Assembly (NCBI GenBank): GCA_010015655.1
Contig: ML976668.1
Location: 596,561-660,560 of the forward strand
Direction of reading: 5' to 3'
DNA length: 64,000 bases
DNA from: Bimuria novae-zelandiae CBS 107.79
Lineage: Eukaryota > Ascomycota > Dothideomycetes > Pleosporales > Didymosphaeriaceae
Of the stretch, positions 26,738 to 60,657 are shown in pieces; position 1 is the stretch's first letter, and every line of letters begins with the position of its first letter. Position numbers and translations under genes: made by a program. Under the pieces are notes generated by a model. That model saw nothing but the letters and a program-made list of their open reading frames with translations, had not been told where the DNA came from and did not search any database.

Positions 26738-26772
26738 ACGTATTTTATAAGCGAGTGGCGAATACAAGTAAG

Positions 26773-26945
26773 TGTCACGAGTCGTAGGTCGAGGGCCCTC
26801 GACGGCCCTAGTCCGCTCTAGACCAGCGCTATCCGGGCCTTCCGCCTATCTACTTCCCTCGCCGCAGCCCTTCTCTTCCCTCTCTAAGGAATCGCCTTAG
26901 TACTGTGAATAGACTAAGTCGCCCGTAGTCAAGGCGCTTTTTACA
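26773..26945 (+). repeat. Gypsy 5' LTR
   Basis: 173 bp, TG...CA ends, paired with 33785-33957. GC content is higher than in the surrounding island. Confidence 0.9.
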
Positions 26946-28499
26946 ATACGATCCCTTACCCCCTTATATCTAATTCACCTATACGATAGAATTGACACGA
27001 AGAGTTACCCGCTAGACCTTAAAGATAGTAAGAGACCCTTAAAGCAGGTTACTACTTGCAGGACCCTCTAAACAAAAGCCTCTAATAGTTACAACGCCTA
27101 TAGAAGACCTAACAATACTTACAGACCTAGAGAAAGACCCCCCTACTATTATAAGTAGTAATAATAACTAATAATTAGAGGAAGTTACCCTCTAAGAACG
27201 CCTAGGCGTGCTATAGCTCTAATAACGCATCTAGGAACTAGAGGCCTCTCTAATAGTAAAGCGTTACTAATTTAAAGGCAAGACCCTAGTTAGGAACAAG
27301 ATAATAACTACTAGTATCTCTAATAACTCCTTAGAGCCTAAGGAGGGTTACGGCAACCTAGACAAGGCTAAAGATATAAGCGATAACCTATTAAGTAATA
27401 GCTTAACAGAGGACGCGTCCTTAAGCTTAGATAATACTAGTTAAGACTAATCTAGGGCCTCTAAAAGCATCTAACGCCTATAAAAGAAGGATAGACAAGG
27501 CCAGGCCCGCACTAGCCGCGATAAAGACTATTAGATCTAAATAGTGGCTGCTGCCCTAGACGTACAGCTACTAAAGCCGCTAAAACCCTTTTAATTTAAG
27601 GGTAAGGGTCGCAAGAAACTAAACTTATAGAAGAAGGCCTATAAGGACTATATTAACTTCTTACCCGCCCTTAAAACTAACGAAGCGCAGGTTAGGTTCG
27701 TAGTAAAATACTTAGGAGATACATAATATAACTACTAAAACTAAATAGTCGCCAAGATCCTAGAGCGAAAGCGATATAGGAAAGTTACCTAGAACCTTCT
27801 ATAGCAGACTATAGTAGACTCCCTAAAATTAGCCTAGGAGCGAAAGAGTGCCGCTTACTAAAGGATTAACGTAGCTAAATAAGATATAAAGACCCCTATA
27901 GAACTCCTTAACTACCTTAAGGACTAATAGGAGGAATGCGAACTAGAGAAGGCCTTAGATAATAATAATAAAGACTATATTAATAACTTCTACATAGCAC
28001 TAGATAAGAAAATCTAAAAACGCCTTAAATAGTAGCCGCGCGAATAAAAGAGCCTCTTTTACTTAAAAGTAAAGGTAAATATATATTAGCGAGCGTTAAA
28101 ACCTTATAAGTTAAGGAAATAACGCATATATAATATTAATAATAACTTCCTTAATAAGCTAGTTAATAAAAGGCGCAATCGAAAGCGATCTAGGTTAAAT
28201 AACATAAAATTATACTAGAGACGCCACGATAGCGACTATCGCGACAAGGACAGTAAGAAGAAGGCTTAGGTAATAGAGAATAGGAATAAGGACTAATACT
28301 TCTACTACTACAAACTAGGCTATTATAAGGCGTCCTGTTTAAAGTATAAGGCCGAGGCGGGGAAAGACAAGCTGTAGACTAGGAGGCCTAATAGTTTATA
28401 GGCAAGATTAACTATAATAAGGGTTAATAATAACTAGTCGTAGCCGCAAGGACCCCTAGGGATAGGAGTAGTAGCTTACTAATCGCGCTAGATAGTGAA

Positions 28500-31400
28500 G
28501 TACAGCATAAGGGTAACTAATAACAGATTAAAGCCCTAGTAGACTACGGAGCTAAAGCGAATTTCGTTAGTAGTAATCTAATAAAGCAGTTAGGGGTTGC
28601 GGTAATAATAATAAAAGGCAAACGCTACGTGGCGCTAAACGGATAAGACTTAGGCGTTTTAGGCCAGGCGAAGCTCCCCTACACTATTATAGATAATTAC
28701 GGTAAAACCAAGAGCGGTAGTTGCCTGTTTATAGTTAGTAATATTAGTGGATTTAACATGGTCCTAGGAATGCCCTGGCTAGCAGAATAGAACCCTATTA
28801 TAAACTTCTATAATAAGACTATCCGCTTCGCCCATGGGAAGCGCAAATAGACTAAAATCTCTACTAAATTAGCAGAAAAGTTCGCCGGCACGGCTAAAGA
28901 TATAGTAAATAACTATTTTATTATATATACTATCCTAAAGGACACATTAAGAGGCCCACCCGGGACGCTACCTAAAGAATACCAGGGACGGTGGGAGGAA
29001 GCCTTCTCTAAAGAAGCCGCGAGCATTCTTGCTAACTATGGCCCCTACGAGATAAAGATCAATATCGAGGAAGGTAAGGAAGTGCCTTTTAGACTACTCT
29101 ATAGTCTATTAGAGTTAGAGTTAGTAGTTCTGCGCGACTATATCTAGAAGAACCTTAAATAAGGCTTTATTTAATTATCGCGATTAAGCGCTAGGGCACT
29201 AATCCTTTTCGTAAAGAAAAAGGATAGAGGCCTCCGCCTCTGCGTTAACTATAGGGGACTAAATGTAGTTATAATAAAGAACTAATACCTACTTCCCTTA
29301 ATATAGGAATCCCTTAACTAACTAGGGGATGCCTAGATCTACACTAAACTAGACCTAAGGGACGCCTACCACCGCGTCCGAATTAGGGCAGGAGATAAAT
29401 AGAAGACAGCCTTCTAAATAAGATATAGATAGTATAAATACACAGTAATGCCTTTTAGCTTAATAAACGCGCCTGCGACCTTCCAAAGCCATATTAATAA
29501 TATACTATTAGACCTTCTTAATATCTATTGTATTGTGTACCTCGACAATATCCTTATCTACTCTAAGACAAAGGAGGAACACATCTAGCACGTTTAGACA
29601 GTGCTAGAACGCCTTATTAAACGCCGGCTATACGCCAAACTGTCTAAATGCGAATTCTACACACGCAAGGTGGGATACCTAGGCTTTATAGTATCCCTAG
29701 ATAGCGTAGAGATAGAGGAGGACCGCGTCGCCTTTATAAAAGATTAGCCTAAACTAAACTTAGTTTAAGCAGTTAGGATCTTCCTTAGCTTTATTAACTA
29801 CTATTAAAGATTTATAGAAAGATTCTCTTAAGTGGCGGCACCCCTTTACGCCCTAACAAGTAGGCTAGAGGGAGCCACTAAGGGTAAATAGCAATAGAGA
29901 CTTAAGGAATTAATTATAATAAGCCTACTAAAGCAGGCTAATGCCTCCTTTTACTAGCTAAAAGAGAGCTTTATGCGAGGGCCCTTACTAGCTTACTTTA
30001 ATCCTAAAAGACCCTCGAGAGTGAAAACTAACGCTTTAGGTTTCGCGATCTTAGGTATCTTAAGCTAATTGTAACTAGATAAACATAGGAAGCTATAATA
30101 ACACCTAGTTACTTTTTATTCGCGCAAGATAAACTAGGCAGAACGAAACTATAACACGCATAATAGTAAGTTACTAGCGATTATTAAAGCTTTTAAGCAT
30201 TAGTAATACTACCTAGAGGGTGTTAGCGAGAAGGTTAAGCTTTTAACTAATTATGCTAACCTGCAAGGGTTTATATCTATAAAAGTCCTAACTAGATAAT
30301 AGGCAAGGTAGGCCGAATAGCTTATAACGTTTAATTTTAAAATTAAATACTATCTAGGAAGGACAAATCCCGCTAATAGACTATTACAGAGACCTAACTA
30401 CAAGTTAGAGAAGGAAACAAGCTTAGGCGGGATAGGCAGTTCCTAGTAAAGACTCCTTAAGGCCCTATAGCATAAGTTATAGCTAAAAGGCAACGCTTTA
30501 GACAAAGTAGGCGTAGCAGGTAGCCTATAGCCACTAAAGCAGGCAGGAAGCCCTAGACTAGTAGTAGTAATAAGAGTTACTAGACCTAAAACGTTAGTAA
30601 CTAAGGAGGTAGTGGTAAACAATTTAGCAAGCGCTTACTCTATAGTAGAGCTATTAAAGAGAAATAGCTAGGGGGACGAAACTGCAGAACAAATCCTTTA
30701 GTACCTCTAAGGGCTAGAGATGGCAAAGCCGGAATGGCTAAAGCGCTGGATAATTAGACTGGCCAACCTATTATAGTACGAGAATAGGCTATACGTGCCA
30801 CCTCTAGCGAGGGTACACGTCCTTTAATAATACTACGATAACCCCCTTACGGGCTATTTTAGCTTTACTAGAACCTTAGAGCTAGTGCTATAGGAGTTCT
30901 AGTAGCCTAGTGTCTAATAATACGTAAAGGACTACGTCTAGACCTATTAAGTGTACTCTAGGGCGAAACCTGTCTAACACGCGACGCACGGCTAACTTAA
31001 TAGCCTACTAGTTCTAAGGGGTATCTAGGAGGATATTACTATAGACATAGTAATAAATCTACCTAAGAGTAAATCTAGAGCCTATCGTTATAATAGCATC
31101 CTAGTAGTTATTAACTAGTTATCTAAGATAGCACACTACATCCCCACGCGAAAGGACCTAAAGGTAGTAGAGCTAGCTAAAGTTTTTAAAAGAGAGGTTC
31201 TGCGCCTATACGGCCCTTCGAAGTTAATAGTTATAGATAGAGGTAGCCTATTTATATTAGCTTATTAGAGCACCTTTACTTAATATTTAAAAACTAAGTA
31301 ACTTCTCTCTACTACCTTCCACCCGCAGACAGACGAACAGACAGAATAATAGAACTAAACGCTTAAATAGTACCTTTAAGTGTTCTATAACTATAAATAA

Positions 31401-32110
31401 TCTAATTAGGCGGACCTTCTATCTAAAGTAGAATATTCGTATAATAATAGCATTTATAGCTTTACAGGAGTGTTGCTATTTATTATAGTATACAGCCTAA
31501 ATCTACTAATAGTAGACCTGCCCCGAGAAGTACAGCTGCGCGGGTTGGTACTTACGGTAAGGGCCAGAGCGGCAGTTCTAGCCTAGACTAGGGCCTAGAT
31601 GACCTAAGCGATCCTTAGGGCATAGATATACTAGGCGACGTGGTATAATAGGAAGCATAAGGTCTAAACCTTTATAGTAGGGGACATGGTATACCTTAAC
31701 GTTCGTAACATATAGTTAATTAGGCCTAAGAAGAAACTTAACTACAAGTCCTAGGGTCCTTATAGGGTAAAACGGCGGATTAGTTAACAGGCATATAAGC
31801 TAGAGCTACTAAAGGACTTTAATATTCACCTAGTGTTCTATATGTCTCTCCTAAACTAGGCAGCTCTAGAAGAACTGCTATAACAGGAGCAAAGCCTGCC
31901 TAAGGTTATTATACTATAAGTAAGGGAGGATATATACCTAATTAAAGAAATTAAATCTAGGGTACTCCAGGACGGAGAATGGCTGTATAAAGTTAAGTAG
32001 AAAGGATACGATAGCGATAAGAACTAGTAGTTGTTTACGGAGGAGATCTCTAAAAGGGCGATAAAGCAGTTCCTAAAGGGCTTAGACAAGGAGACTAAAG
32101 GTCGCCCTAG
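28500..32110 (+). pseudogene. Gypsy pol remnant (PR-RT-RH-IN-chromodomain)
   Basis: Reading through stops gives, in order: ALVDYGAKANFVSSNLI (protease), a stretch with KLDLRDAYHRVRI and [17 protein letters not shown] (reverse transcriptase), then VGYLGFIVS. Integrase appears as NSILVVINWLSKIAHYIPTR, and the chromodomain as YLIKEIKSRVLQDGEWLYKV. The stops are mostly TAG/TAA in place of Trp and Gln. The element cannot encode a functional polyprotein. Chromodomains target integration to H3K9-methylated chromatin in this clade. Confidence 0.85.
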
Positions 32111-32479
32111 ATAAGAGCCTAAGAGGCGGGGTTGCCCCCCTAGAGAAGGAGGAAGACAGCACTTAATAGTAATTAGTAATAGATTACCCTAGAGAGTACA
32201 CTTTATAGGCTGCGAAATACTAGAATAAATAAGGTAAAGGATTCTTAAATAGAGTAAAGACTAGAACAAGCTATCTAGGCCTATTTACGCCTCTTAGGGC
32301 CTAATAAAGGCTTATAAGCCTATTTAGACTGTACCTAACGCGATTATAGCTAACCAAAACCTAACTAAAACCGCCTAAGGGTATAGAACGTAAATAAAAT
32401 CTAAATACTATTAATAGGGGCAGGAATCCCTAGATCGTACTAAATAACCCTCTTAATTAGTTAGGCGCTTAGACTTATA

Positions 32480-33500
32480 GGCTTACTAAAAAGTCTCCTA
32501 ATTACCCTTACTCTTGATTTTCTTCTTTACTTCCTCCGCAAGGAAGTCTAGCGTGGCTAGGATACTAGCCTTAAACGCTAACTATCCTAAATTAGCATTA
32601 ATAACCTAGGATTAGGGTTAAGGACTCTTACTAACTTAGGAGCAACCTTCTTGCGCCTAGGGGTAAAAGCACTAGTAGTAACTAGGGAGGTTAAACTACC
32701 CCCCTTTATAGTAAAAGCTTTTCTCTTCCGCTTCTCCTTAATAGAGAGGCCTACCACCAGAATAATCTCCTTAGGAGGCTAGGTGTTATAACCTAAGTAG
32801 TAAGGGGTTAACAGGTTTCCGCAGAATTTGGATCCGGTGGCCCTATGTAACTTAGTCTAGATAACCCTTAACTACACTAAATAATACTTATATAATAATA
32901 TTACTTTATTCTGTCTCTAGTACCTGCGTGGTGGCCTTTACTAATATCTTGTCTAATCTAGAGAGGTTAATCTCGTCGCATGTGTACGTATTAATTTGGC
33001 TTAAGCGTAGTATAAGGGTAATTAGGGCACTTAACACGTTCTCTAAGTTATTTTTAGGTATCTACTACTAATTAGCCTTAAAACCCCTACATAACTCTTA
33101 AAGCGCTAACTTACCTACTAATAATCCTTACCACCGCTGTAGCAGGCATTATAGCGGCAGATTAAATCGTAGTCCTCTAAATCTATTAGGCTAAGATTAA
33201 TATACACTACCCTAGACTAGACACGACGTATCTCCTTAACCTAAAACTAATAGAGCTTTATCTTCTTATAATCAGACTACTTAAGGCTATCTAGAATAAT
33301 AGGAAGGTAGATATAGTATAGGTTAATAGTACTAACTGCGCTCGCACGCGCCTTATTAACTAAGGTCTTAAGAATAGTATTCGCGGTACTTATAGTGCTA
33401 AATAGCGTAGGTATATCTAGATAAAGTCCGAAGGTTGCTAAAGAGGGTAGTAGAAAAGTAATAAGTATAGGGACGACTTAGCAGGCCTGCACTAGGTTAG
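32480..33500 (-). other. Antisense coding-like region in the Gypsy 3' part
   Basis: Downstream of the chromodomain about 1.7 kb remains before the 3' LTR. On the minus strand, long frames interrupted only by TAG/TAA can be read: TLFSTISTANTILKTLVNKA, then INLSLIDLEDYDLICRYNAC at about 33210-33130, and further on TPYYLGYNT and EKRKRKAFTIKGG in another frame. The pattern of stops at likely Trp and Gln positions resembles RIPed coding DNA. No family recognised. It may be an antisense ORF of the retroelement or captured DNA. Confidence 0.4.
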
Positions 33501-33784
33501 TCTACCTTTACGACCCCTAAATTTAGAGCGGCTGGGTACTAAAATAGGGGGCATCTAGGGTCAGGCACCCTAGACTGCTATAGATTGGCTAGGTCGTACT
33601 TACGGGTTAGGGAGCCTCCGGGATGAGGTAAGCCGCCGAGTGGAGAGTAAGAATAAGGGTTTTAGGCCTTAGTGTAAGCCTAAGATTTAGCTTACGTTAT
33701 TAGCTTACGTAATACGCGAGGCCTAATTAGGCTAGTTATTACGTACTTATTCTCGCGGTCGAGACCCTTAAAGAAAAGAGCCTT

Positions 33785-33957
33785 TGTCACGAGTCGTAGG
33801 TCGAGGGCCCTCGACGGCCCTAGTCCGCTCTAGACCAGCGCTATCCGGGCCTTTCGCCTATCTACTTCCCTCGCCGCAGCCCTTCTCTTCCCTCTCTAAG
33901 GGATCGCCTTAGTACTGTGGATAGACTGAGTCGCCCGTAGTCAGGGCGCTTTTTACA
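33785..33957 (+). repeat. Gypsy 3' LTR
   Basis: 173 bp, matching 26773-26945 except for five transitions. Confidence 0.9.
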
Positions 33958-35465: not shown

Positions 35466-35893
35466 TGTTAAGTCCCTAAGGGATAGCTAGTCCTTATAGG
35501 ACTAAGGTTAGTTCTCGGGCAAGAGTACTAGTAAGGCAAGGAAGGGATTATTAATAACTTACACATATTAATAGGATATTAAGATTAAAAGTAATACGCG
35601 GTTATGAAGAAATTAATAGTATTTAAATATAATCTAAATAATAGATTAATAAATAAGGTTAAACATAAAGGTAGAAGGTCTATCTTCCACGTTCCTATAT
35701 ACAAGTCTCAGACTACTCGCTGGCGAACGCTCTTCCCAGAGCGCTCTTTAACAAGCGCTCTCTGGAGAGCAGTCACGTGACTTCGTAAGTGCTGACAACG
35801 CGGCAAGCGAAGACAAGGGTGTCTCCACGTGTGCGCGCTGTGACTAAGTACAAAATGGTTCGCTGTTCTTATGTTGGATCGTGGATCCTAACA
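35466..35893. repeat. Solo LTR 2 (428 bp, TSD TACAA)
   Basis: Starts TGTTAAGTCCC and ends GATCCTAACA. TACAA occurs immediately before (35461-35465) and after (35894-35898). It interrupts the CCHC-like end of the Fot1-B transposase (CSHYK before, KTNYNS after). The right third is GC-richer and less mutated than the left. Confidence 0.8.
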
Positions 35894-36975
35894 TACAAGA
35901 AGACTAATTATAACTCGTAAATATATAAAAAGGATAGTATATGTACTATTTAACCTATTATAGTAATTATATATAAGTATTTTACTATATTATTAAGATA
36001 GATTGCTGTAAAGGTGTAAAACGTTAGTGGGGTTTAGACTGGTAAATGGGTTGGATCGCAAGGGCCACAGTTAGGTCTAACTAAACAGAACACTAAAATT
36101 TTGAAACTTAAACTCTTTATAACTTTTTAAATATAAGGAATATACGTATACACACTTAGTACGAGGTGTATATATATATAACTTATATATTTGTAAAAAA
36201 GAGTCTATGTTTTATATTTATTTTAGCGAGAAAGTTGTTACGATTACGAATCCCACAGAAATAATAGAACTGGACAATTGCGCCAAGAGAGTTATTATTA
36301 GCGAAATTACTAAGGCGAAGGAATATAAGAAAGCGCGGGGTAGCTTAGGTTAATAGTTACGTAATAAGGTCCCGCATAATATAAGATCTTATAGGACCTT
36401 AAAGGTCTTAAGAACCTTAGAGTCTTAGCAGGACTACGATAATAATTTTAATAATAACAAAAACTAAGATAAATAATATATAGTTTAATAATTTCTCTAT
36501 ACCTTTCCTACTCCTTATAGTTAACTTAATATACTACGAGTATATTTCTTATTATAGATTAGTAAATCTCCTAGTCAGTTATTCTATAGTCTATTATAGA
36601 ATTAGATTATTTGTATACCTTAGTATTGTTATTTTAAGCTTTTAACTACTAAATATATCTATAAGGTATATTACTCCAGACCTATCCACTCCTAACCTAG
36701 ATTAGGCTTATGTAAGTAAACCTTCTTATAATAAAAGTATCTATTTACTAATCTTTTATAATCATTTTTAGGATGCACGACTTAATATATTACGATTAAT
36801 ATATATATCTTATATTAAAATTGCAAAAATATAGGTCCTCTATTTATAAAGTTATAGAGAGTTTAGGATTTAAGATTTTAATATTCTGCTTAGTTATGAC
36901 AGATGAGTGGAGCTCAAAAGTGGAGAGAAAAGTCGATTGTATTATGTGTATGCTAAGACTAGCTATCTATAGTAC

Positions 36976-37248
36976 TGTCAGATTGGAGGGGTAATCTGAT
37001 GAGATGAAAAGATGGTGATTAATTAAGATAAATTGTGGTATAAATTGTTGTTGTCTGTTCCTGTAAGAATGTAAGGCTCTTATATCCTTACGTCTTACAC
37101 TAATACGCTAATCTATTTCCGTTGATTAAGGAGAGTTGCCCTTTGTCCCGCCCAGAATTGTGCGGATGAACCAGACTGCTGGCAATGTCTCTTTATGTAG
37201 GGTTGCGCTAGCTACCTTTGCGTGTGCAAAGGGCCATGTAATCGGACA
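36976..37248 (-). repeat. Copia-1 3' LTR
   Basis: 273 bp; partner of 42118-42390. Confidence 0.9.
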
Positions 37249-37577
37249 CACCCCCTTAGCTTAGGCTTATCCTTAAGCTAGACCTTCGCAGTTGTCTATT
37301 ATTCCACCTTAAAGGCCTCCATTCTTTGCTAGAGATCCTGTAGGGCAACCTCTTAATTAGTGATCTTATCTAATATATCTTCAAGTCCTAGTTTATGCAG
37401 AAATTTGCTCCATTTATTCACTAGCAGGGCCTTTATAAGTCTATTAGCGACTATGTTCTCTAAGCGTTAATAGTCCACCTTAATTGTCCCTAGTGCGACC
37501 TCTTGTCTCAGCTAATAATTATAGATATCTATATAACGGAGCTTAGTCTGCAACTTAGTAATTTCTTTAGTAATAAG

Positions 37578-37841
37578 TCAGATCGTTTGCTGATTATTAT
37601 AATTAATTGTAATAAGAGAATTGCTAAGGTTGATCTTTAGTTCCTTCAGCAATCGCGATGTGAATAAAGCCTCCTTAGCCACTTGTGATAGTGCTAGTAA
37701 TTTGGCTTTAGTTATTAATGTAGTGACTGTATCTTGCTTATTTACTTTCCAGGCGATCAGGCCACCAAACAGCTTAATAATGTATCCTTGCGAGCTCTTG
37801 CGGTTAAGTGTGTTGTTGGTAAAGGATGCGTCACTTGTCAC
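37578..37841 (-). pseudogene. Copia-1 RNase H fragment
   Basis: An 87-codon open stretch reads SDASFTNNTLNRKSSQGYI, then LFGGLIAWKVNKQDTVTT and LLALSQVAKEALFTSRLL. This is the RNase H domain of Copia polyproteins. It is open only by chance between stops; upstream pol is disrupted. The expected acidic residue of the STEAE motif reads ITKAK here, so catalysis would be lost. Confidence 0.8.
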
Positions 37842-42117: not shown

Positions 42118-42390
42118 TGTTAGATTGGAGGGGTAATCTAATAAGATGAAAAGATGGTGATTAATTAAGATAAATTGTGGTATAAATTGTTGTTGTCTGT
42201 TCCTGTAAGAATGTAAGGCTCTTATATCCTTACGTCTTACATTAATACGCTAATCTATTTCCGTTGATTAAGGAGAGTTGCCCTTTGTCCCGCCCGGAAT
42301 TGTGCGGATAAACCAGACTGCTAGCAATGTCTCTTTGTGTAGGGTTGCGCCAGCTACCTTTGCGTGTGCAAAGGGCCATGTAATCGGACA
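42118..42390 (-). repeat. Copia-1 5' LTR
   Basis: 273 bp; partner of 36976-37248. Confidence 0.9.
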
Positions 42391-42460
42391 AGTACACGAA
42401 TAGAGAATCGATGACTAAGCAGGTGCACGGTGGACCGTAGGGTTACCGGGGCAACTGACA

Positions 42461-43403: not shown

Positions 43404-45183
43404 CAATGGGTGGAAAAAAGTGGACTATCGCTCACGTGAAATTCCTTGGCTGAACACCGAAAATTTTAGCTACATCGTGAATTTACCATTAAAGTAGCTT
43501 TTAAGCAGCAATATACTAGATGTAAAGGTATTTAAATTATGCCGTAAAGTTGTTATTATAATTAGCTTTTTCACAAGCTTTAGCCACATCACGAAAGTGA
43601 TCAGGATAGAGTTAATAAGCTATATATTGCCTTATCGTCTTATCTTCCTGCTAAATAGATTGTACGAATGCCACTATATCGTTTTTAGCTTGTTTTAACG
43701 CGCTCTTTACTTCGTAGTCCTTTAGGAAACCCTTAAGCCTGCTAAAACAGCGCTTAATTAGGTGTAGATTAGGTAAGTTAAGGGAGTGTAGAGCGAAGCG
43801 TATGTCCTTCTCTTTAATTTTAGGTGCGCAATATTAGAGCCCTAGGCTATAAAGGTAGACATTATCTTGCACTAAGAACACTTAAGCATAAGGGTTGTTG
43901 GCGCGTATAGCTTTATAGTAGGGAAAAACAACGTCCTTAAGCACCTATTCAGCGTACCAGATCCCGTTTATACCCTTCCTACTTTTGTATACAAAGTCCT
44001 CGTATTTAAAGAACTTATTAGGAGTAATAAGGTTTTTATAACTAGCCTAGAGGGCTCCTCCCTTCTTGCTAGTAGCTTAATTAGTAGCCTTAGTAGCCTT
44101 ATTACAGTAAAGAATATTATAATTAATCTTACTAAGAGCGCGCTCCTCTTAGGTGCTAGCAACATCTACACGGGCCCTTTTATTATTAATTAATTTACGA
44201 GCCCTCTTATTAGCTTTACGTACGCGCTTAAGTGTCTCCTTGTAATTCTCCTCCTCTTCTGCCACCTATACTAAACATAGGCGTTTTAGACTACGAATAG
44301 TAGTATTAGTAGACGTAGCAGCGCAGATCGTAAGGCTAAAAGAGGGTAGGCAATATAGGAGGGCGTATTTATTAGCTAGAGTGCTACGTGCCCTTTAAAT
44401 GTATTACTTGCCTCCGCGAAGATTCCTGCGTCTAATTAATTTGCTAGTTTCGTCGTAGCAAATAAATATAAGCTTAGGAGCAAAGCGCTTATGTGTAGTA
44501 AGGATCTAGGCAACGTAGCGCTCTTGGTTGCGTATATCGTCGTTGTTAAGCTTAGGCTTCTTTGGGCGTACACCTCGTATAATAGCGTAGGTGTGGTCGT
44601 GATCGCGGTGCTCGTGAGCAATTTTGACTAGTGTAGGATAGCTTACTGTAATCCCGACCTCTTAGAGGACGTAGCAGGTCAATTCTTTAATATTATAAGT
44701 GCTAAATTATATAATAGCATTACGTATTTAAGCACTAAGCTTGCTGCCGTTACGTACCTTAGGTTTAGCTCTAGGGGGACTAATACGGGTAGCATAGACT
44801 TTGGCTAGCAAATTGTTAAGCGATAGGTTAAGCGAGGCCTCCGCACAAGCCTTTTTAACCTTCTTAAAGACTTTCTATGGTGTTGAGATGCTTAAACCCA
44901 TCGCGCCAGCGATATAGGCGTATTTAGTGTTCGAGAGCTTGCGTAGGGCTACGATAGCACCTTTCTGAGCCTCTGTAAGGTTGCGAGAGTCGTTCGGGCG
45001 GCCGCTAGTGCGTTGAGGTGGCATAATAGGTGTTGTTGGCGAAAAAAATCGCTATATACGAGGTGGTGATAGAGTCCTGGTGTTTAGTTTGGAGCTGAGG
45101 CACGGACCAAGTGCCCTTATTAATAAGATAACTAGCGCCTTGGCAGTTCACGTAAGCGATAGTCCACTTTTTTCCACCCATTG
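43404..45183 (-). mobile_element. Tc1/mariner-like element in Copia-2, RIPed
   Basis: A 1780-bp element flanked by TA (43402-43403, 45184-45185). Its 37-bp TIRs, starting CAATGGGTGGAAAAAAGTGG, differ by one transition. The minus strand from ATG 45024 reads MPPQRTSGRPNDSRNLTEAQ, then a helix-turn-helix-like region. Catalytic-type segments follow: ICYDETSKLI, VFLVQDN and LHLIKRCFSRLKGFL. Several stops and frame breaks make it inactive. It splits the Copia-2 frame between reverse transcriptase and RNase H. Confidence 0.8.
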
Positions 45184-45275
45184 TAAGTCGTGATTTTTAT
45201 AGTATTTTTTTAATTTTCTATTTAAGAGCAGTTATAGCGTCCTTTAGGTATATAATTAAAATAAGATTATTAATA

Positions 45276-47122
45276 ACGTGGTTCACCACCGAGCGGGCCA
45301 ACCCCACCAAGCGGGCCACTTTTTAAAAGTCAGTCTATTGCGAAGCGCCTCCTATAACACTACTATAATTTACTATAATTCACAGAACATAGAAATACTA
45401 TTTAGACTTATTACTATTAGATGTATCTATAATTTCTACTGCGCAAGTGCGAGCGTTGTGGCCAGCTTTGCCGCAACGTCTGCAGCGCCTCTGCCCATAC
45501 ACCCTCTTTACAGACTCTTCACCCTCCTTTTGCCTACTACTATCCTTTTTAGCTATTAAATTGACTACCTCTTTTACTATAAGTGTCTTAGCTGCCTAAA
45601 TATACTTCCTCTTTTAACTTTTTACCTTTATTACTATTTCTACTACCTTACGAAGCCCTGCTATTTCCTATTATATTAATACTATTTCGTGCCCTATTAA
45701 TGCAACACCTTTATTAAGCTACTTAATAGCTCTAAGAAGCGGAGAAACTAGTAAATCTCTATACTTTTATACACGCTTACGAACTAGCGTTAACTAAGCC
45801 TCTATCTTGCGGAGGTTACTTAGTGTTTTTAATTCCTATAGGGTATCCTCTACGTTAGGTGGAGTTAGCGTACAAAGAACCACATTAAGTCTTAATAACA
45901 CCACCTCTAGGTTGTGTAGGACTAATCTAGCGCCTCTAAAGCCTGCGTAGATATTCGCCTTTATTATTACTTTTTTAAAAGCTACTTTAAAAGCTAGTAG
46001 AAAGGCCTCCTTCTTAATCTACTTAGTACTATATCGTGCTAAGCTACTAATCTCATTACTGTACGCCCGCTTTAAAGGCGAAAAACAACCTACATTAAGT
46101 AGCTGCAAGAGGTGTGATGAGTGTAGAGGTATATAGAGAATAATAATCTTCTGTTCCTTATAGTATTTATAGAATTCGTGTAAGCAGTAGCTTTCGTAAC
46201 TATCTATAATTAGTAGCTAGTGTGCACCTAAACTACGCGCCTTAGTATAAGTATTAAAGTGCCTTAGCTAGGCAAGGCTAAGCTTGTTTAACGTCTAGCT
46301 ATTAGGACTAACTTTAATAACCTAGTCTTAGGGTAGATTGTGGAACTAAGACGTGATTAGAACCTTACTAAGGAAGATAAAAAAAGGTAGTAGAGCCTAG
46401 CCTTTAGCGCTAACACCTTAGATATTAGTAACCTACTTATAGTTATTAGGTTAAATCTTCTTTAGGTTGCTTCGCTTCTTAGAGCCTGTAAAGACTATCT
46501 AACCCTATATTACCCCTATTATAAAGCCTGTCTCGTCAAAGTTATACGTGTCGTTATTAGCGATACTGTACTTAGCCTTAGTATTAGCAACCAGCTCGAA
46601 CTAGGGCGTTATAATACGTAGATTTTTATTTAGGGCTTGCTAATAATTATATAGATAGCTTTTTTAAAGCTTGATTTCTAGCGTACGCGTCTTAAGCCTG
46701 TCTATCTAGTGCTTACTAATAGGCTATCCACCGCGCTTAGCAAGTAGATTATTAGCTATATCTTAGATTATATCCCTTGTTGCACCTATTCCTCGCTAGT
46801 TAAGCTTAAGTATACGTTAGACTAGAGCCTCCTCCTCTAGCTTAGTTAGCTTCTTTAAGTTAGGCTTATAATTGCGTCGAGAGAGGGCTTCTTAGCGTCG
46901 TTATTATACTATTATTTAAGGCACGCTAAAGGCTATAATAATACGTTTTTTGCTCTTATTATAATTTTTAATTATAGCTTAGATAGCAAGCTATAGTGCG
47001 CTTTTAGTATAAGGTTGTTGCGCGTTATATTGTAATGGCATTATAGTATAAGCTAGAGGTGGGCTGCATTTAGCAAAGTTGGCCCGCTCGGTGGGGTTGG
47101 CCCGCTTAGTGGTGAACCACGT
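45276..47122 (-). mobile_element. Fot-C: Fot1/pogo-type element in Copia-2, RIPed
   Basis: 1847 bp flanked by TA (45274-45275, 47123-47124), with long TIRs beginning ACGTGGTTCACCACC and containing GCGGGCC repeats. The minus strand from ATG 47041 reads through stops as a pogo-type transposase, with YNFDETGFIIGVI (first catalytic Asp) and HSSHLLQLLNVGCFSPLKRA (third catalytic region). Not functional. The TIRs are far less mutated than the interior. Confidence 0.8.
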
Positions 47123-47493
47123 TATAGATAATAATAATTTTACCTTTACGCATAAAGACGCATAGGTGCAACTTTAATAATTTAAATTTTAGGTTCTTAA
47201 GGGGGATCTTTAGGTTGTTATACTAGAGTAAGGCAGACTCTTTTAGTCTATATATACCTTAGAGGAGGTGTACTATCTAGTAAGCTAGCGGGCAGCCTTT
47301 AGGTAGTTTAAGGAGGATAACATGCTCTAGGGAAAAGTAAGCGTTTAAGTATATAATTATTATATTAACCCACTTATACTTTAAATCTTTAGTAGTAATA
47401 ATTATAAAGACTGCCTTTAGTATTATTATGTGCACGACATAACTATATACGTTTTAGTACTAAAAGGCTTAAGTTTATTAATTACTATAAGTA
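47123..47493 (-). pseudogene. Copia-2 reverse transcriptase remnant
   Basis: The minus strand reads AVFIIITTKDLKYKWVN, LKLPKGCPLAY, GIYRLKESALL and LHLCVFMRKGK. These correspond to the RVT_2 core of Copia polyproteins (A.DLEL.Q.DV, LP.G, KGIYGLKQS, CVF). It is bounded on both sides by DNA transposons. Confidence 0.75.
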
Positions 47494-49348
47494 GAGTCTC
47501 CCCCCCAGATTTGACCCAACCCCAGATTTAACCTAGTAAAATCAACTCTGCGTACGTGATTGCATTGCGCGTCGCGTGCGCTTTGCCGGCCCCTCTAATA
47601 AACTATCTACTAAATAATCCGAACCTTCCGCTTCCTCCTAACTATCTTCTTCTAGTACTACAACCTTTTATAGGCGCCCTCTTACTTATTTTATTATTAG
47701 CTTCGCCTCCTCCTCGCGGGCGATCTATAATACTTCCGTTATTATGTAGATTAATTAACCTTCTAGTTAAACTCTTTTTTCTTTCTTAGCCTTCTTTTGC
47801 TTTTAAAGAAGCTTAGACTAATCTGCGATCTACTTAGCTTAAATAGCTATTATAGCATTCTGCATTTCGCAGAGGCGTGTTATCCGCTCTACGTAGCGTT
47901 TTACTAGCAAGAGGACTGCGGGATCCTTGCAAAGTAACTCTATAAATTACTTATTTAATCTTAGTAGTTCTACTAGCTCTAGAGGAGAGCTCTATAGTAG
48001 AAAGAGATCTAAATTAGTCGCTTATTATAGTATAGCTAGGATAGGCAATAGCGGGGGCAACTTATAAGACAGGTTACTAAGGACGCGCATAGGTAACGCA
48101 GGCTATAAGCTAGCGGCACGCTATCTACTAAGTATATTTTTCTTTAATATTACCTTCTCTCGTGCGCAGGATAGTAATTCTATCCACTCTAATCGCGGAA
48201 TACGCTATAAGCTAAGCCGGGATATTATATGCGTCTTATAGGAGTGATACTGTTTAAACGCCGAAAAGATGCTAAGATTAAGAGATTAGAGTATATACAA
48301 GTAATAAGTAGGCATAATTAGAAGATTAATCTAATTTCTTATATAGTAGGCGATAAAATCTGCGCGTATATAACTTCCATGTCTATTCGCGATAAGTAAA
48401 CGCTAGCGCCCCGCAGCCTTGTCGCGGGTTAATAGATTAAATACTCTTTTTAGCCATTCTAGACCCAGGTTATTTAATGTCTAGCCATTCTTACTAGTAG
48501 CAAAATGCCACCCTAGAGGCGATTACTTATTAATCTATTATATATTAATGTTATTTCCTTTAAAGATTAGGAGGGAAGCTAGCGCTTCGCCTGTAGTATT
48601 AATATACTTAATATCTATAATCTATTCTTGCTTCCTAGCAATTACTTTGTCCTTTTAAGTAGTATTAAGGTATACTAATACCTTTATAATCTGCTCCTCA
48701 CCAACACCGAATCCTGACTTATCCATGTTTTATATATCTAAAGGGAGGTACGCATGCTCCTCCATTTTTAAAGCTACTGCGTTAAACCAGCGTTCTACAC
48801 GCGCGTAGGATGCTCCTTCCTTTCGTAAATGCTTAAGATACCTAGTAAATACCCCTTCTATTTTAGGGTTCCTCTTTTAGAAACGTGTAATCTATTTATC
48901 ATTAATATAGAAGAGTAATTATAAAAAAGAGGCTAGTTATAACGCGTGCGTAACGCGTGCGGCCCGTATAAGAAGGGTAAGCTTTTTTAGCATTAAGTAG
49001 GTAATTTAGGTTCTAGTAATAGTATAGTTCTTAATCTATTATATAAGAGTCTTTTCTTTCGTGTTTGACAGGATCTAAGCTATTTCGTGGCTTATAGACT
49101 GCGTTAAGCCGCTGTAATACCTGCGGTGTAAGGTGCGTCGCGAAACTTTAAAGAAGTCTATAGCAGAATTTAGAGAAGAAAAATCTTTATTTTAAAAGGC
49201 ATATAAAGCCTTCTGTATTTGAATTTCGCGATTTAATTGTCTTTTTAGTGTTTAGGGAGGCATTAGTGAAAATAACGCGTGATGCATGCGCGTCGCGTGC
49301 TTTTGCTGGGTTAAATCTGGGGTTGGATCAAATCTGGGGGGGGGACTC
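47494..49348 (-). mobile_element. Pogo-D: Fot1/pogo-type element with G/C-run TIRs
   Basis: 1855 bp flanked by TA (47492-47493, 49349-49350). TIRs start GAGTC, followed by a C-run and AGATTTGAYCCAACCCCAGA. From ATG 49263 on the minus strand the frame reads LKRQLNREIQIQKALYAF and NSAIDFFKVSRRTLHRRYY, a CENP-B/pogo-like N-terminal helix-turn-helix. Stops of TAG/TAA type interrupt it. Different TIRs from Fot-C mark a separate family. Confidence 0.78.
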
Positions 49349-51698
49349 TAACTATCTTAGTATTAACTTTTATTAATAGGCTAGTAGCGTCTCCCTTATA
49401 GTTATATACTTACTAGGTGTTAATAACTTCATTTTTTTTCTTATTGCAGGGCGCTAGGTGTTATTTAACATAAGTAATTAAAACTTAGCCTTTATAGGAT
49501 GCTTACTTAGAGCTCTATAATTCTATAGTTCCAGTAGTAATAAGGATAACTTTATACCTATTAATAACTTAAATATAGCTAGTGCTAAAGAGCGTATAAA
49601 CGTAATTACGCCTATATTAACGCGTTAACGCGCTTATTAAGAGCCTTTAAGGAGGATAAGGTAAGTAGCTAGGTTAGCAGAAATCTCTATCCTACGTAAG
49701 GCAACGTTACTATGTCTAGTTAGAGGTATAAGGCCTTCAGTAGACTTATTAGTAGGCTTGAAACTATTAAAATAGCACTTTCCCTTAGTAATTATAAGTA
49801 GTATCTCCTCTTCCTCCTGTTTACCCCCTATAATAACAGGATAAGGTGTTATTAGGCGCTTAATTATAGCTTATTTAGAGAGGACAGGAGGCATAATAGT
49901 AGTTAGTAGTAATAGCGTTAGTAAAGGCTTATTTTAAAGAGTAACTACGCGTACGTATCTATTATATAAGTTAAATTTAATACTTATAGTCGTAATTATA
50001 ATAGGTTACTCAGGGATTTATATCTTATAAAGGGAAGAGCCCTTTATACTTATAAGAAGGCCACGCTTAGCGTAAATAGTAAACTTTTTATCTTTAATAT
50101 AGGTGTTAGCAGGCCTATGTACGTATCCTACGTATTTAAAAGCGTAAGTTAGTCCTAGGTTAGGTACTAGGTTAAAAGCTCTAATAGCTATATATTATAG
50201 CTTATACGACGTTTTATCCTCTAGTACTTTGCTTATTAGGCTAAAGTTAAGTAAGCGGACTGTTGATTGGGCTCTCACAGCTAGCTGTACATGGGGTGAG
50301 CATGGTGTAGTAAGGTATAAGGTTTTATACGGTGTGCACAGCGTATAAAGTAATAGGAAGGGTAACTAGTTCGTGTAATTACTTTATCTCTCTATTATAC
50401 AAACGAAGGTGGCGATATTTCAAGAGGCGAGCTACGCACGGACATTACATAAGATAACCACGTGATCACGTGTTGGGCCTTATAGAATACCCTTCGCCGT
50501 ATCGCCCCTGCGTACGGACACGGACTGTATATACGGTATAATAAGGCTAAGATATTTTTAGTAGACCTAATGCTATTATTACTACTTAAAATTAGTCTTT
50601 AGTAATACTATTTACTTTGTAGTTTTATTACGGAAGGGATCGTGCGGTGGGGAATACTAAAATAGTGCACTCTTTTTATAATAGTATTCCTTTATATAAT
50701 TACTCATAAACTTACTAGCCTCGTTAAAATAGATAATAGTAACTATTAGCTATAGGCTTACTTTTATTTATTTTAGCTAGTTAATTAATTTAGCTATAAG
50801 AGTTATATATAAGTTAAACGTAAAAAGCTTGCGTTTACGCGTTAAATTATTTATATTAAGTAGTTAGTAGCGCTCTTTATCCTGTTTATTAAAAAATATT
50901 AGCCCTACTATATTAAGGTAGATCTTTTTTAATTAATATATAGAGCGTGCTTATTAATAACAAGTAATAAATTATTTTAATTTTAATAGACTATAGTGCT
51001 TATAATTAAATAGTGTAAAATTAGATAGCTCTATACTATTAATAACTTTTAAGAGCTACTTAATTATCTCTACGTCTTCGTGACCTATAATATGGTACTA
51101 TACATATAGTGGGCGAGCGATCTTAGGTGGCCGAGTAGAATGTAAGGCGTATAGAGTCACGTATGTAAGCGCGTGAGGTACCTTCTCTACTAAGTTAATA
51201 ACAAGAAAGTTAGGTATCCTATTAATCTCTAGTAAATAAGCAATCACTTCTTTATTACTTAGATAAAGCTTATTTTTACTACTATAGTAGTACGCGCCCT
51301 TGCGCTTAAAAGACGATTATAATATAATATTAATATTAAATTTTAGGTAGTATAGAGCATCTCTAAGTTATATATCTATAACCTTACTATCTAAGTAAAT
51401 AATACTTAGTTTAATAGATTTTCTCTATAGGCCTTAGCTATATAGATTACTCCTTATACTTCTAACATTATTTAGCCTCTAAAGTTAATAAACAGCTCTT
51501 ATATATTAATAATAATTTAGTTGGTGGCTATATTATAGTAAAAATATTAATAATAGGTACTATATATAGTAGCTTTTAAGTTAGTATTTAGGATACTATA
51601 GTAGTTAAGTAGAACGCTAAAGTGTTAGACACAATTAAAATACTAGTAATAGCTTTCTTATTATTACCTGTCTTATCCTTATCCTTATTCTTATTATA
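49349..51698 (-). pseudogene. Copia-2 pol middle part (integrase side), strongly mutated
   Basis: By position this must hold the protease-integrase part of Copia-2. Coding can be read only in scraps on the minus strand (for example EEEEILLIITKGKCYFNSF around 49750). It is interrupted by solo LTR 3. Assignment rests mainly on order and on the size sum of Copia-2. Confidence 0.5.
50261..50520. repeat. Solo LTR 3 (260 bp, TSD CGGAC)
   Basis: Starts TGTTGATTGGGC and ends GTACGGACA. CGGAC lies before (50256-50260) and after (50521-50525). An alternative right end some 90 bp earlier is also followed by CGGAC, so the exact end is not certain. GC-richer than its surroundings. Confidence 0.65.
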
Positions 51699-53536
51699 AC
51701 GTACTTCACAAGCGAGCGACTCACTCCACCAAGACCCCATTAAAACATTCTATTTCCTATAGTATAGCGCGATGTCTTAACTACCTTATTAGTTATTATA
51801 ATTAAAAAAGACTTAATTATAGCTCGCGCTTTAGGCTATTAAATAAAACGTAAATTTATTATAATAATATACAATAGCTATTTATAATATCTCTTAAAAA
51901 TTACTTAGTTAATAACGCGCTAGAATTACTTTTTAACGTAATTATACGCCTATCTTAATAAATCTACTTATAATAGAAGAGTAGATTATTATTTAGTATA
52001 TACTTAACTTAGACGCGCGAGGATTTCTACCCTAGCTTGCTACTATAAAGAATATAGCTAATTCCTTGCTAGCTAAGCGCTACTAAGACTTAGCTAGCTA
52101 AAACTAAGCTATAAAATTTATTAAGCGCTAGCTAGAGCTTAAAATAAAGTTTAATTAAAAGTATAACTATAAGAGAGCCCTCTGTAAGGATCCTAAGGTT
52201 ATATAAGGCTGGTTGTGGCTTATGGTAAATACTAAAGCCAAGTATGGCATCCTAGACGAAGACACCTATAACGTTAATAAGTCTAGCTTTATAATAGGCA
52301 TAATATTAATAGGAGTAGTTATTATAGTTTTTAAGTATTAAGGTAGGCTAAAGTGCGTATAGTAAAATATTTAATAGTAAATAATAACTATCTAGGGCGT
52401 TAATATAATAGGCTAGGCGATTCTACCCTTCCTTATCTTTTAGGGCAAGCACTGCCTCTCTACCTAGTACTAGGAGAAGGATCTACCTCGCGACTAGGTT
52501 TTTAGAGTCTCTAAAAATAGCTAAATAATAAATAAGCTTAGTTTATAGTAGTTAAAGTACTTTAACGCGTATATAAAAAAGTATACTTTTAGTAGTTATT
52601 AGTTACTTATTATTAATAGCTACGAGAGCTATAACTTACTTAAATTTTAGTAATACTATACGAATAATAAGATTATTACTTTCTATATGCCTTTATATTT
52701 GTCGCACCTCTTATAGCTACTAGATATAGTGTGTTTCTCGCTATTAAAGAAGACGTATAGACGCTAAGCTAAGGATCTAATACGTAACTATATTACGTAT
52801 ATTACTAAAATTAAGTTTTTATCTTACTTTATTACTACTTTTAAGGCTATAATTACTTAAAGTAATATTTAAAAAGACTTTTAAGGCGCTAACCTTATTT
52901 CCCTTAACCTAAAAGTAATAATATTAAAGCTTAACGTTCGTCTGCGTACGTCTTTGCCTTATACTATATATAATAGTACGTAGTAGTTATAAAACACTAA
53001 GTAATACTTTAGAATTAGGGTTATAATTAATACTAGTAAAGGAGAAGATTTAGAGGTACCTAAATAGTTCCTTAATAAGTATAGTTAAAGTAGTTAAAAA
53101 GCTTATAAAAGTCACTAAGCTAATAGCGTATTTTTTAGTATTAATAATAAAGTATAACGCTAAGCTTTAAGCTACTAATAAAACTACTAGGTAATAAAAA
53201 TTATATAAGAGAAAGTAACTATAGCAAGAAGGAGTCCTTATAGCTACTAATAGTTAGTAACTAGCTATTATAAAGGACGTTACGGCGCGTAGTAATAGGA
53301 AGAAGGTAAAGAAGAGGGTATGCGCTAATAAGGGTAAGCCTACTTAATAACACTATAGGCGCTATAGCAAGGCTAGGCATAACTTACGCACGTGTAAAAA
53401 AGAAGTAAAAGTAAATTCTAAGTAGATTAGACTACTATAATTTCTTATAACTGTTTATGCGCGTTCTGTACTATTATGTAGAGTATAGATTTTAGTAAGG
53501 TCTTGGCAGAGTGAGTTGCTCGCTTGTGAAGTACGT
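51699..53536 (+). mobile_element. Fot1-E: RIPed Fot1-type element in Copia-2
   Basis: 1838 bp flanked by TA (51697-51698, 53537-53538). TIR starts ACGTACTTCACAAGCGAGC on both sides. The plus strand reads AKYGILDEDTYN followed by a RIPed DET-like motif near 52245-52310, and a CCHC-like tail (CSKAR, HNLRTC) near 53370. Closely related to Fot1-A. Confidence 0.8.
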
Positions 53537-54919
53537 TACTATAAATATTTTAGGATTAGCTCTAGGTGCTTCTTCTAGTAAAGCTTCTTACCCCTATGAT
53601 ACTTACGTTTATAGTATATACAGTACTACTTCTTAGGACGTAGGCTCTAGTTATAGATCTGCTTTCTATTTTAGTTTAAGCTAGTTATAAGCGTATATTT
53701 AGGTGCGTTTAGTACCTTTTTATTAGTATTATAATAATAACTATTAATCCGCTTTTCCTTTTATTATTTTATTTTAATTATAAATACTTTAATAAGCTCT
53801 TTGTTTTCATATTAAAAATAATTCTCGATTACGATAGTGAGCTTATTAACTATCTACGTAGTTTTATTACGTAATTTTACCTATTCTAAGAGTACGCGCT
53901 CTAGACTATATAAAAAATAAAAAATAATTAGATTTTTAGCTAACACGATTATTAATGTGCTTTAAAGTTTTTAAGGACTAATCTTATAGTAAGTAAAAGT
54001 AACGCTTATTTATACTAATTATAAGTAAGTATCTTAAAAGTAATTAATTTAATTACATACTAAGTAGTAGGTATTAGCGTAAAAGTTAATAAAGTTAGAT
54101 TATATAGCGCGTAAGTTATCCTGCTTAATAAGTAAAATATAGTTAGTAATATAGGTATATATTTTAGCTAATAAATTAAAGCTAGTTAGTGCTAGGTATA
54201 AAGACTTATCAATAGAGCTAATAATAGCGTTTTAAAGAGAGGCATTTTAACTATCTTAAGCCTTAACGCGGGTAAGAGTTAGTACTTTAAAAGTTTATAT
54301 TTATTTATTTTTAATAATTTAGGAGTAATTAGTCTTTTTATATATATTAAACGTCCTAGTCTCTTCTTCTTTTAATATACTATTAGTAATAATAATTTAT
54401 ATAAGTGGATACTCTTTATAGTTGCGAGAGGCGTACGCAGGACATGCCTTTATGCCTAAAAGGATATATTTCGCGCTATGCTCTATAGTTGTATTAGTTA
54501 TCTATTTATTCTACTCCTTTTAGTTATAGCCTGTCGCGTTAAGCACGATCGCGCCTATAGTTAAAGTTAACATATTATAGATTAGTAAAAGCTTACTAGA
54601 GCTTTACTAGGTTACTATAGCTTTAGCAGTGCAGGATTAGCTCTTACGGTACTAAAAATTAGTGTAAGTACTAAGATCGATAGCAGGCTACGTGTCAGGG
54701 ACATTCTTGACCTCCACAAAAGGCGACCCTCGGAGATCCTCCGGATCTCCCTCAGGCCACATTTGGAGCACCCCCCGGCTCAGTCACGTGCCCTAGTCTA
54801 TATATGTCTCTATAGACCCTTCGATATCCCGTAAGGATTTGTCTAATATACACGTTTACCCTGATCCGAATTGCCTGCCACACAGTACCTCACACTACGC
54901 TTAGAAGGACAACATAACC
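53537..54919 (-). pseudogene. Copia-2 gag remnant and 5' leader
   Basis: The minus strand carries the CCHC knuckle CIYCKRKYHRGKKC at about 53600. The part next to the LTR starts GGTTATGTTGTCC on the minus strand, at the place of a primer-binding site. Solo LTR 4 is inserted in the leader. Confidence 0.6.
54693..54894. repeat. Solo LTR 4 (202 bp, TSD CTACG)
   Basis: Starts TGTCAGGGACATTC and ends GTACCTCACA. CTACG at 54688-54692 is repeated at 54895-54899. Contains CACGTG and a TATATATG element, as LTR promoters do. Confidence 0.75.
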
Positions 54920-55063
54920 TACTAGATAAGTAGGGCTCAAAAGTGGACAGAAAAGTCGATTGTATTGTGTGTGTGCTGAGACTAGCTATCTATAGTACAT
55001 GAACAGAGAATCGATGACTAAGCAGGTGCACGGTGGACCGTAGGATCACCGGGGCAACTGACA
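54920..55063 (-). repeat. Copia-2 5' LTR
   Basis: 144 bp. It aligns without gaps to 36897-36975 joined to 42396-42460. Most differences are transitions. Confidence 0.85.
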
Positions 55064-55141
55064 AGTTAGACCGAACTGTGATCCTTACAACCAACCCATT
55101 TACTAGCCTAGTAGGGTTCGCCGGTTGCTTATAAACTAGGT

Positions 55142-60620: not shown

Positions 60621-60657
60621 CGAGGAGCTCGTAATAATTGAGGAATAGCGCCAACGC
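60621..60657 (+). repeat. Left TIR of the intact Tc1/mariner element
   Basis: 37 bp starting CGAGGAGCTCGTAATAATTG, inside which GAGGAGCTC is partly palindromic. Its inverted partner is 62286-62322. Confidence 0.9.

What the first reader, a model, noticed from the sequence alone, without database searches (positions are those of the whole stretch)
26738..55141. Transposon nest at least four levels deep, resolvable by target-site duplications
Within 28 kb: Fot1-B holds a Gypsy element (TSD GTAAG), a solo LTR (TACAA) and a hAT-like MITE (GTRGGGTT). The MITE holds Copia-2 (AGTTA). Copia-2 holds Copia-1 (AGTAC, inside its LTR), four TA-flanked DNA transposons and two more solo LTRs (CGGAC, CTACG). 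The ends and TSDs of the inserts inside Copia-2, of both Copia elements and of the Gypsy are visible in the sequence; Fot1-B's right end is weaker. This gives a relative order of insertions for at least ten elements in one place.
Basis: seen in the sequence. Interest (0 to 1): 0.8.

Follow-up and report, generated by a model that had tools for sequence, protein, structure and literature searches.

The report
Nested transposons with mutation-spared ends
The pile of jumping genes inserted into one another is real but of an ordinary kind; what is unexpected is that the fungus's mutational defence (RIP), which has wrecked their interiors, fades towards the ends of several of the element families, which is probably why the nest can still be read.

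Summary
The nest is real: thirteen elements in 28.4 kb, four levels deep (Fot1-B > hAT MITE > Copia-2 > Copia-1). All seven 5-bp target-site duplications are exact, the 8-bp one matches 7 of 8, and all five TA pairs are present. Other copies of the host families are uninterrupted at the insertion points. Such nests are known in fungi, so this part is ordinary.

The surprise is elsewhere. The interiors are heavily RIP-mutated, but in four of six families compared across copies mutation fades over the outer ~120-250 bp. LTR pairs give an internal control, since both LTRs of a new insertion start identical. T/A alleles sit mostly in the LTR whose base lies further from the element's end: Copia-1 102 vs 25, Gypsy 39 vs 11 (18 of 20 elements inward, 2 ties). 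Copia-2 leans the same way without significance (30 vs 20). Two families show no fade. Published passages report the opposite trend in Zymoseptoria. I read this as RIP needing homology on both sides of a site. LTR-divergence dating is unsafe here.

The parts
26738..55141 (.). Level 1: Fot1-B, a Fot1/pogo-like DNA transposon interrupted by Gypsy, a solo LTR and the hAT; TA on both sides
   Evidence: ends and TA; 14 family copies L025-L038 aligned
26773..33957 (+). Level 2: Gypsy element, LTRs 26773-26945 and 33785-33957 (173 bp), TSD GTAAG
   Evidence: RVT_1 on piece 29433-29585; 40 copies scored of 112 candidates, window included
35466..35893 (.). Level 2: solo LTR, TSD TACAA
   Evidence: 14 of 14 Fot copies uninterrupted
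36035..55110 (.). Level 2: hAT-like MITE (391 bp of its own in three pieces), TSD GTGGGGTT/GTAGGGTT
   Evidence: 439-bp copy in L011
36236..36733 (.).
36897..55063 (-). Level 3: Copia-2 LTR element (about 4.94 kb of its own), LTRs 36897-36975 + 42396-42460 and 54920-55063 (144 bp), TSD AGTTA. Superfamily not confirmed; strand inferred by eye from a G-run next to the left LTR
   Evidence: 16 loci L039-L054
36976..42390 (-). Level 4: Copia-1 inside the left LTR of Copia-2, LTRs 36976-37248 and 42118-42390 (273 bp), TSD AGTAC
   Evidence: RVT_2 piece 38427-38567 (just below cut-off)
43404..45183 (.). Level 4: T1, TA-flanked DNA transposon in Copia-2
45276..47122 (.). Level 4: T2, TA-flanked DNA transposon with a DDE_1 piece
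47494..49348 (.). Level 4: T3, TA-flanked DNA transposon; 40 copies scored of 63 candidates, 91-100% (window included)
50261..50520 (.). Level 4: solo LTR, TSD CGGAC
51699..53536 (.). Level 4: T4, Fot1-like DNA transposon, TA
54693..54894 (.). Level 4: solo LTR, TSD CTACG

Best explanation
Shown: a Fot1-like element was hit by a Gypsy element, an LTR element now a solo LTR, and a hAT MITE; the MITE was hit by an LTR element (now solo) and by Copia-2; Copia-2 was hit by Copia-1, four TA-target DNA transposons and two LTR elements now solo. [quoted passage not shown] Inferred: RIP recognises homology by pairing that needs matching sequence on both sides of a site, so the last ~200 bp of a dispersed repeat, which border unlike DNA, are poorly mutated. 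That would leave LTR outer halves and TIRs readable, let short solo LTRs escape, and erode away as an element passes through more sexual cycles.
For: Nest. Window profile summed over 8 elements longer than 1 kb: (CA+TG)/(CA+TG+2TA) is 0.61 in the outer 40 bp, 0.27 at 40-80, 0.24 at 80-120, 0.14-0.24 to 250 and 0.12 beyond 300 bp. Copia-2, 16 loci against the window copy: transitions 2-6% in the outer 120 bp, 15-18% beyond 200, ends lower than inside in 16 of 16. With five other copies as reference (13 of 15 copies usable each): 1-4% in the outer 120 bp, 9-11% beyond 600; transversions 0.3-0.4% beyond 600 and 0-1.1% in the outer 120 bp. Gypsy left end, 3 copies: 0-0.8% in the outer 80 bp, about 8% beyond 600, transversions 0-0.8%. 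T1 left end, 5 copies: 0% in the outer 40 bp, 9-14% beyond 250. LTR polarity: Copia-1 102 inner vs 25 outer in 10 pairs (p 3e-12; 10 of 10 elements inward); Gypsy 39 vs 11 in 10 pairs (p 9e-5; 8 inward, 0 outward, 2 ties). CpA context: 98 of 127 Copia-1, 31 of 39 Copia-2 and 22 of 47 Gypsy LTR transitions. The highest level seen is reached at roughly 120-250 bp from the end whether the LTR is absent (T1), 144, 173 or 273 bp long.
Against: The FotB family shows no end fade (three references, 13 copies each), nor does the 498-bp LTR family (14 copies); both have more transversions (about 1-8%) and may be old enough to have saturated, which I did not test. Copia-2 LTR polarity is not significant: 24 vs 14 in 8 loci with exact LTR limits (p 0.14; 24 vs 15 with one base too many), and the window's own Copia-2 pair is 6 vs 6. 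One element, L042, runs 10 outer to 1 inner; its RIPped flank does not explain it, because L044 has RIPped flanks and spared LTRs. Against the window copy, Copia-2 transversions too are lower at the ends (about 0.4% in most loci against 2.8% inside); this difference largely vanishes with other references. In FotA and T4 the spared zone is only 40-80 bp. Gypsy and T1 were measured at one end only, in 3 and 5 copies. Passages of PMC10294615 report de novo RIP highest in the distal windows of LTR elements of Zymoseptoria tritici, and PMC2621366 a slight rise towards the ends in one Stagonospora family. Fresh pairs meant as replication could not be fetched. RIP itself rests on the mutation signature only.
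Confidence: 0.7

Rival explanations
1. Leak model: RIP recognises only the internal region; LTRs are too short to be recognised and receive mutations that leak outwards from the inside.
For: Also predicts inner-biased LTR differences; leakage out of repeats is described in print (passages of PMC7296669 and PMC10294615).
Against: T1 has no LTRs and shows a ramp of similar length. In Copia-1 the share of mutated cells jumps at about 200 bp, inside the 273-bp LTR; in Copia-2 the rise goes on past the 144-bp LTR border to about 200-250 bp. The Copia-1 interior beyond the LTR was not profiled across copies.
Confidence: 0.16
2. Functional constraint or base composition: ends look spared because LTR and TIR sequences are conserved or poor in target sites.
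For: Ends are binding sites for integrase or transposase and are shared by active copies (general knowledge).
Against: The LTR test compares the same positions of the same sequence at the inner and the outer place within one element. The window copies of Copia-1, Gypsy, T1, T3 and T4 have no stop-free stretch above 105 aa, so selection on each dead copy is unlikely.
Confidence: 0.07
3. Gene conversion by the many short, little-mutated solo LTRs restores the outer parts of LTRs after RIP.
For: Solo LTR families are numerous (41 matches, 40 of 55 candidates scored).
Against: Conversion tracts should restore LTRs as a whole rather than only the half next to the flank, and cannot explain T1. Not tested directly.
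Confidence: 0.07
4. The nest is an assembly artefact or a cluster of adjacent fragments rather than ordered insertions.
For: Reads were not seen; the region is repeat-rich.
Against: All seven 5-bp TSDs exact, the 8-bp one 7 of 8; host copies elsewhere uninterrupted at the same positions.
Confidence: 0.02

Closest known systems
Nested TE clusters of Mycosphaerella graminicola (PMC4522978)
   Same: RIP-affected insertions within insertions with TSDs; 78 putative clusters, one shown of 47 kb (abstract and passages); clusters with a DNA transposon as base exist there too
   Different: The cluster shown there holds class I elements only, the nest here mixes class I and class II; the passages read do not treat RIP along the element
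De novo RIP along TEs in Zymoseptoria tritici (PMC10294615)
   Same: RIP measured as a function of position along elements; no leakage into flanks reported there
   Different: There the distal windows of LTR elements are mutated most (passages); here the ends are mutated least
crapaud LTRs in Podospora (PMC10787394)
   Same: Short solo LTRs mostly escape RIP
   Different: There LTRs of full copies (339-443 bp) are RIPped (passages); here LTRs of full copies are spared in the outer part
Repeat constructs in Neurospora crassa (PMC4858203)
   Same: A distal ~130 bp of one interspersed-homology repeat escapes RIP (passage)
   Different: An engineered partial-homology case, not ends of natural full-homology repeats

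Membership tests
Repeat-induced point mutation (RIP) | C-to-T / G-to-A transitions, strongest at CpA, in repeated DNA | tested here: met
   CpA+TpG observed/expected 0.22-0.41 in Fot1-A, Fot1-B, Gypsy, Copia-2 and T4 bodies against 1.11 in the gene region; 98 of 127 Copia-1 LTR transitions in CpA, but only 22 of 47 in Gypsy
Repeat-induced point mutation (RIP) | mutation over the whole extent of shared homology | tested here: not met
   outer ~120-250 bp spared in 4 of 6 families compared; flat in 2
Repeat-induced point mutation (RIP) | needs a RID-type methyltransferase and the sexual cycle | tested here: inconclusive
   five C5-methylase domain matches in the genome, the best three in open frames of 585, 1278 and 2276 aa; none assigned to RID; no cross possible
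Gypsy LTR retrotransposon | LTRs, 5-bp TSD, reverse transcriptase | tested here: met
Copia LTR retrotransposon (Copia-1) | LTRs, TSD, RVT_2 | tested here: inconclusive
   LTRs and TSD met; RVT_2 piece 30.6 bits against cut-off 31.6
Copia LTR retrotransposon (Copia-2) | Copia-type domains | tested here: inconclusive
   no Pfam match in the two pieces tried; LTRs and TSD met
hAT MITE | 8-bp TSD, short TIRs, no transposase | tested here: met
   7 of 8 TSD bases, TIRs visible; 391 bp of its own
Fot1/pogo (Tc1-mariner) elements | TA target and DDE transposase | tested here: inconclusive
   TA met for T1-T4 and Fot1-B; DDE_1 only in a piece of T2

The most novel reading that the evidence does not exclude
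RIP has an end zone: in this fungus the last ~200 bp of a dispersed repeat is nearly exempt, because homology must be matched on both sides of a site. Twice this zone equals the ~400-bp minimum repeat length quoted for RIP, so threshold and end zone would be one property. Ends needed for movement are then preserved while coding parts die, which favours solo LTRs and MITEs, and the width of the spared zone (wide in T1 and Copia-1, narrow in FotA and T4, absent in FotB) measures how many RIP rounds an element has passed through.
Probability: 0.33. Interest if true: 0.75.

Novelty: new variant of a known kind. Interest (0 to 1): 0.5.

Why it matters
If RIP fades at the ends of repeats, LTR divergence cannot date insertions in such genomes (127 of 128 Copia-1 LTR differences are transitions and 102 of 127 point inwards), RIP indices of short elements are misleading, and the open question of how RIP finds homology can be approached from existing genomes: the ramp gives a length scale, and LTR pairs give a built-in control that needs no ancestor or consensus. 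The nest supplies a partial insertion order to calibrate RIP against. The nest by itself is an ordinary example of a known thing.

Tried and rejected
FotA and T4 as references for FotB copies: different families, 61-65% identity for most, uninformative. A fifth outer level around Fot1-B: its left flank matches mostly short repeats (about 1-204, 218-397 and 396-633 of 665 bases), so no single host element was seen; loci for it were not cut and the right flank was not searched. Protein domains for T1, T3, T4 and Copia-2 from stop-free pieces: none convincing. RIPped flanks as the reason for the L042 exception: L044 has the same. LTR pairs: 11 Gypsy and 11 Copia-1 pairs were looked at (10 fetched and the window copy each); L61/62 and L93/94 were skipped because the right LTR was not found; L69/70 has masked bases in its left LTR, is in the Gypsy count and dropped (36 vs 11, 9 pairs). 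Copia-2 pairs: 8 of 16 loci had two LTR matches of 120 bases or more. In one search their limits were one base too long; one search repeats the count exactly (24 vs 14) and adds the window pair (6 vs 6) that one search had left out. Of six T1 loci one (L058) was the other end of its copy and unused. Of five FotB references two (L033, L032) had no recognisable ends.

Paper searches: for end-spared RIP; for nests. None listed a report of end-spared RIP that I recognised, but only passages of eight papers were read, so absence from print is not claimed. The names RID, Didymosphaeriaceae and the general RIP biology are partly recalled.

Full report
WHERE. The window is C13:596561-660560 of a 77.4-Mb, 191-contig genome. 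A Tcp11-domain protein at 5503-8472 has its best named relatives in Didymosphaeria (87%), Paraconiothyrium (87%) and Kalmusia (86%); some unnamed metagenome proteins are closer, up to 89% (120 of 1603 hits listed). From recalled taxonomy these are Pleosporales, family Didymosphaeriaceae. Genes fill 1-23.9 kb (GC 0.54); an AT-rich, transposon-filled stretch follows.

THE NEST. End motifs, LTRs and TSDs were located exactly. Order that can be stated: Fot1-B first; then Gypsy, the TACAA solo LTR and the hAT MITE in any order; inside the MITE the AAAGT solo LTR and Copia-2 in any order; inside Copia-2 the elements Copia-1, T1, T2, T3, T4 and the CGGAC and CTACG solo LTRs in any order. That is 13 elements on four levels. 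Neighbouring pieces overlap by the TSD at the Copia-1 and CGGAC sites (5 bases) and at T1 and mostly T3 and T2 (1-2 bases). At T4 they meet within about 8 bases. At CTACG the BLAST match breaks off with about 75 bases unmatched left of the site, so continuity there rests on the short-flank test (12 of 16). The empty Copia-1 site is also in the window itself, in the right LTR of Copia-2 (D10 and D11). L011 holds a 439-bp MITE uninterrupted at both the AAAGT and the Copia-2 sites. Fot1-B's right end, called weak, matches its own left TIR at 18 of 23 bases and L038 at 18 of 23 (by eye).

RIP. Bodies of Fot1-A, Fot1-B, Gypsy, Copia-2 and T4 have (CpA+TpG) observed/expected of 0.22-0.41 against 1.11 in the gene region, with TA/AT up to 2.1. 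Of the five inserts over 1 kb in Copia-2, four (Copia-1 interior 0.66, T1 0.63, T2 0.52, T3 0.48) are less depleted than Copia-2 (0.22-0.41), as expected if younger; T4 (0.26) is not. Short elements: 202 bp 1.00, 260 bp 0.93, MITE 391 bp 0.65, 428 bp 0.69, 498 bp 0.31.

THE END FADE. In the same profile most LTRs and TIRs are not depleted (Copia-1 LTRs 1.07, Copia-2 LTRs 1.19, but Gypsy LTRs 0.42). Over the eight window elements longer than 1 kb, (CA+TG)/(CA+TG+2TA) is 0.61 in the outer 40 bp and 0.12 beyond 300 bp, with an uneven descent between; in FotA and T4 the spared zone is only 40-80 bp. Composition could explain that, so copies were compared. Copia-2: transitions 2-6% in the outer 120 bp against 15-18% beyond 200 bp, ends lower in 16 of 16 loci; against the window copy transversions are lower at the ends as well. 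With five references other than the window copy transitions are 1-4% in the outer 120 bp and 9-11% beyond 600, transversions 0.3-0.4% inside and 0-1.1% at the ends. Gypsy (3 copies, left end): 0 to 0.8% in the first 80 bp, 2.5% at 80-120, 6-10% further in. T1 (5 copies, left end): 0% in the first 40 bp, 2.5-3.5% to 160, 5.6-6.5% to 250, 9-14% beyond.

THE LTR TEST. The two LTRs of a new insertion are identical, so later differences show where mutation fell. For each C/T or G/A difference the T/A allele was called mutated and the distance of that base to the element's outer end was compared with that of its partner. Copia-1: 10 pairs, 102 inner, 25 outer, 1 other difference; every element inward; p 3e-12. 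Gypsy: 10 pairs, 39 inner, 11 outer; 8 inward, 0 outward, 2 ties; p 9e-5. Without the pair that contains masked bases: 36 vs 11, p 3e-4, 9 pairs. Window copies alone: Gypsy 5 vs 0, Copia-1 7 vs 2, Copia-2 6 vs 6. Copia-2 in eight other loci: 24 vs 14, p 0.14; 6 inward, 1 outward (L042, 1 vs 10), 1 tie. All three families, 29 pairs: 24 inward, 1 outward, 4 ties. Sites within an element are not independent, so the element counts are the safer figures. In Copia-1 the mutated share of C/G cells is 1-6% in each 20-bp bin up to 200 bp from the end and 10-18% from 200 to 280 bp.

LIMITS. Two families show no fade: FotB (three references against 13 copies each) and the 498-bp LTR (14 copies). Both have more transversions, so an older, saturated state is possible but untested. 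Copia-1 rests on the LTR test alone, Gypsy and T1 profiles on few copies and one end. RIP is inferred from its signature; five C5-methylase domain matches exist in the genome but none was assigned to RID.

MECHANISM. Best reading: RIP tests homology over a stretch on both sides of a site, so the outermost ~200 bp of a dispersed repeat is under-mutated. The leak model is the main rival and is disfavoured by T1 (no LTR) and by the ramp position in Copia-1 and Copia-2 relative to the LTR border. Twice 200 bp is close to the ~400-bp size quoted in print, where repeats of 150 bp are also said to be hit at times (passage of PMC10787394); that link is inference.

LITERATURE. Nested clusters in fungi are known (PMC4522978, abstract and passages). 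Z. tritici de novo RIP is highest in distal windows of LTR elements (PMC10294615, passages), opposite to this. PMC2621366 (passages) gives both a slight rise at the ends of one family and central RIP in non-tandem rDNA repeats. PMC10787394 (passages): LTRs of full crapaud copies are RIPped, solo ones mostly not. PMC4858203 (passages): a distal ~130 bp escapes in one construct. PMC7296669, PMC12543289 and PMC13041039: passages only.

The Copia-2 polarity count was corrected (24 vs 15 to 24 vs 14) and the window pair added; confidence was lowered from 0.72 to 0.70 and the novel case from 0.35 to 0.33 for the added 6 vs 6.

Noticed in passing
window 60638-62128: Open 496-aa Tc1/IS630-like transposase frame (DDE_3), not RIPped (composite index -0.63), with two further copies in the genome at about 100% identity; the other matches are at 67-83% apart from two 36-base fragments at 97%. 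Recent movement that RIP has not yet touched.
   Followed up: partly
window 54693-54894: The CTACG solo LTR family has same-strand pairs 8.3-8.7 kb apart on C6, C20, C28 and C68, probably its full-length parents.
   Followed up: no
window 36236-36733: The 498-bp LTR family is very common (654 first-look candidates, 40 scored) and shows no end fade.
   Followed up: partly
window 26073-26737: Between Fot1-A and Fot1-B lie short dispersed repeats (about 200 and 180 bp) found many times in the genome.
   Followed up: no
window 56503-59508: Degenerate repeats about 2.2 kb apart (57085-57284 with 59309-59508, 70%; 56503-56536 with 58706-58739, 85%, D5 and D12).
   Followed up: no
L042: Copia-2 copy near the end of contig C17 with T/A alleles in the outer part of one LTR, against the trend (10 outer, 1 inner); unexplained.
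   Followed up: partly
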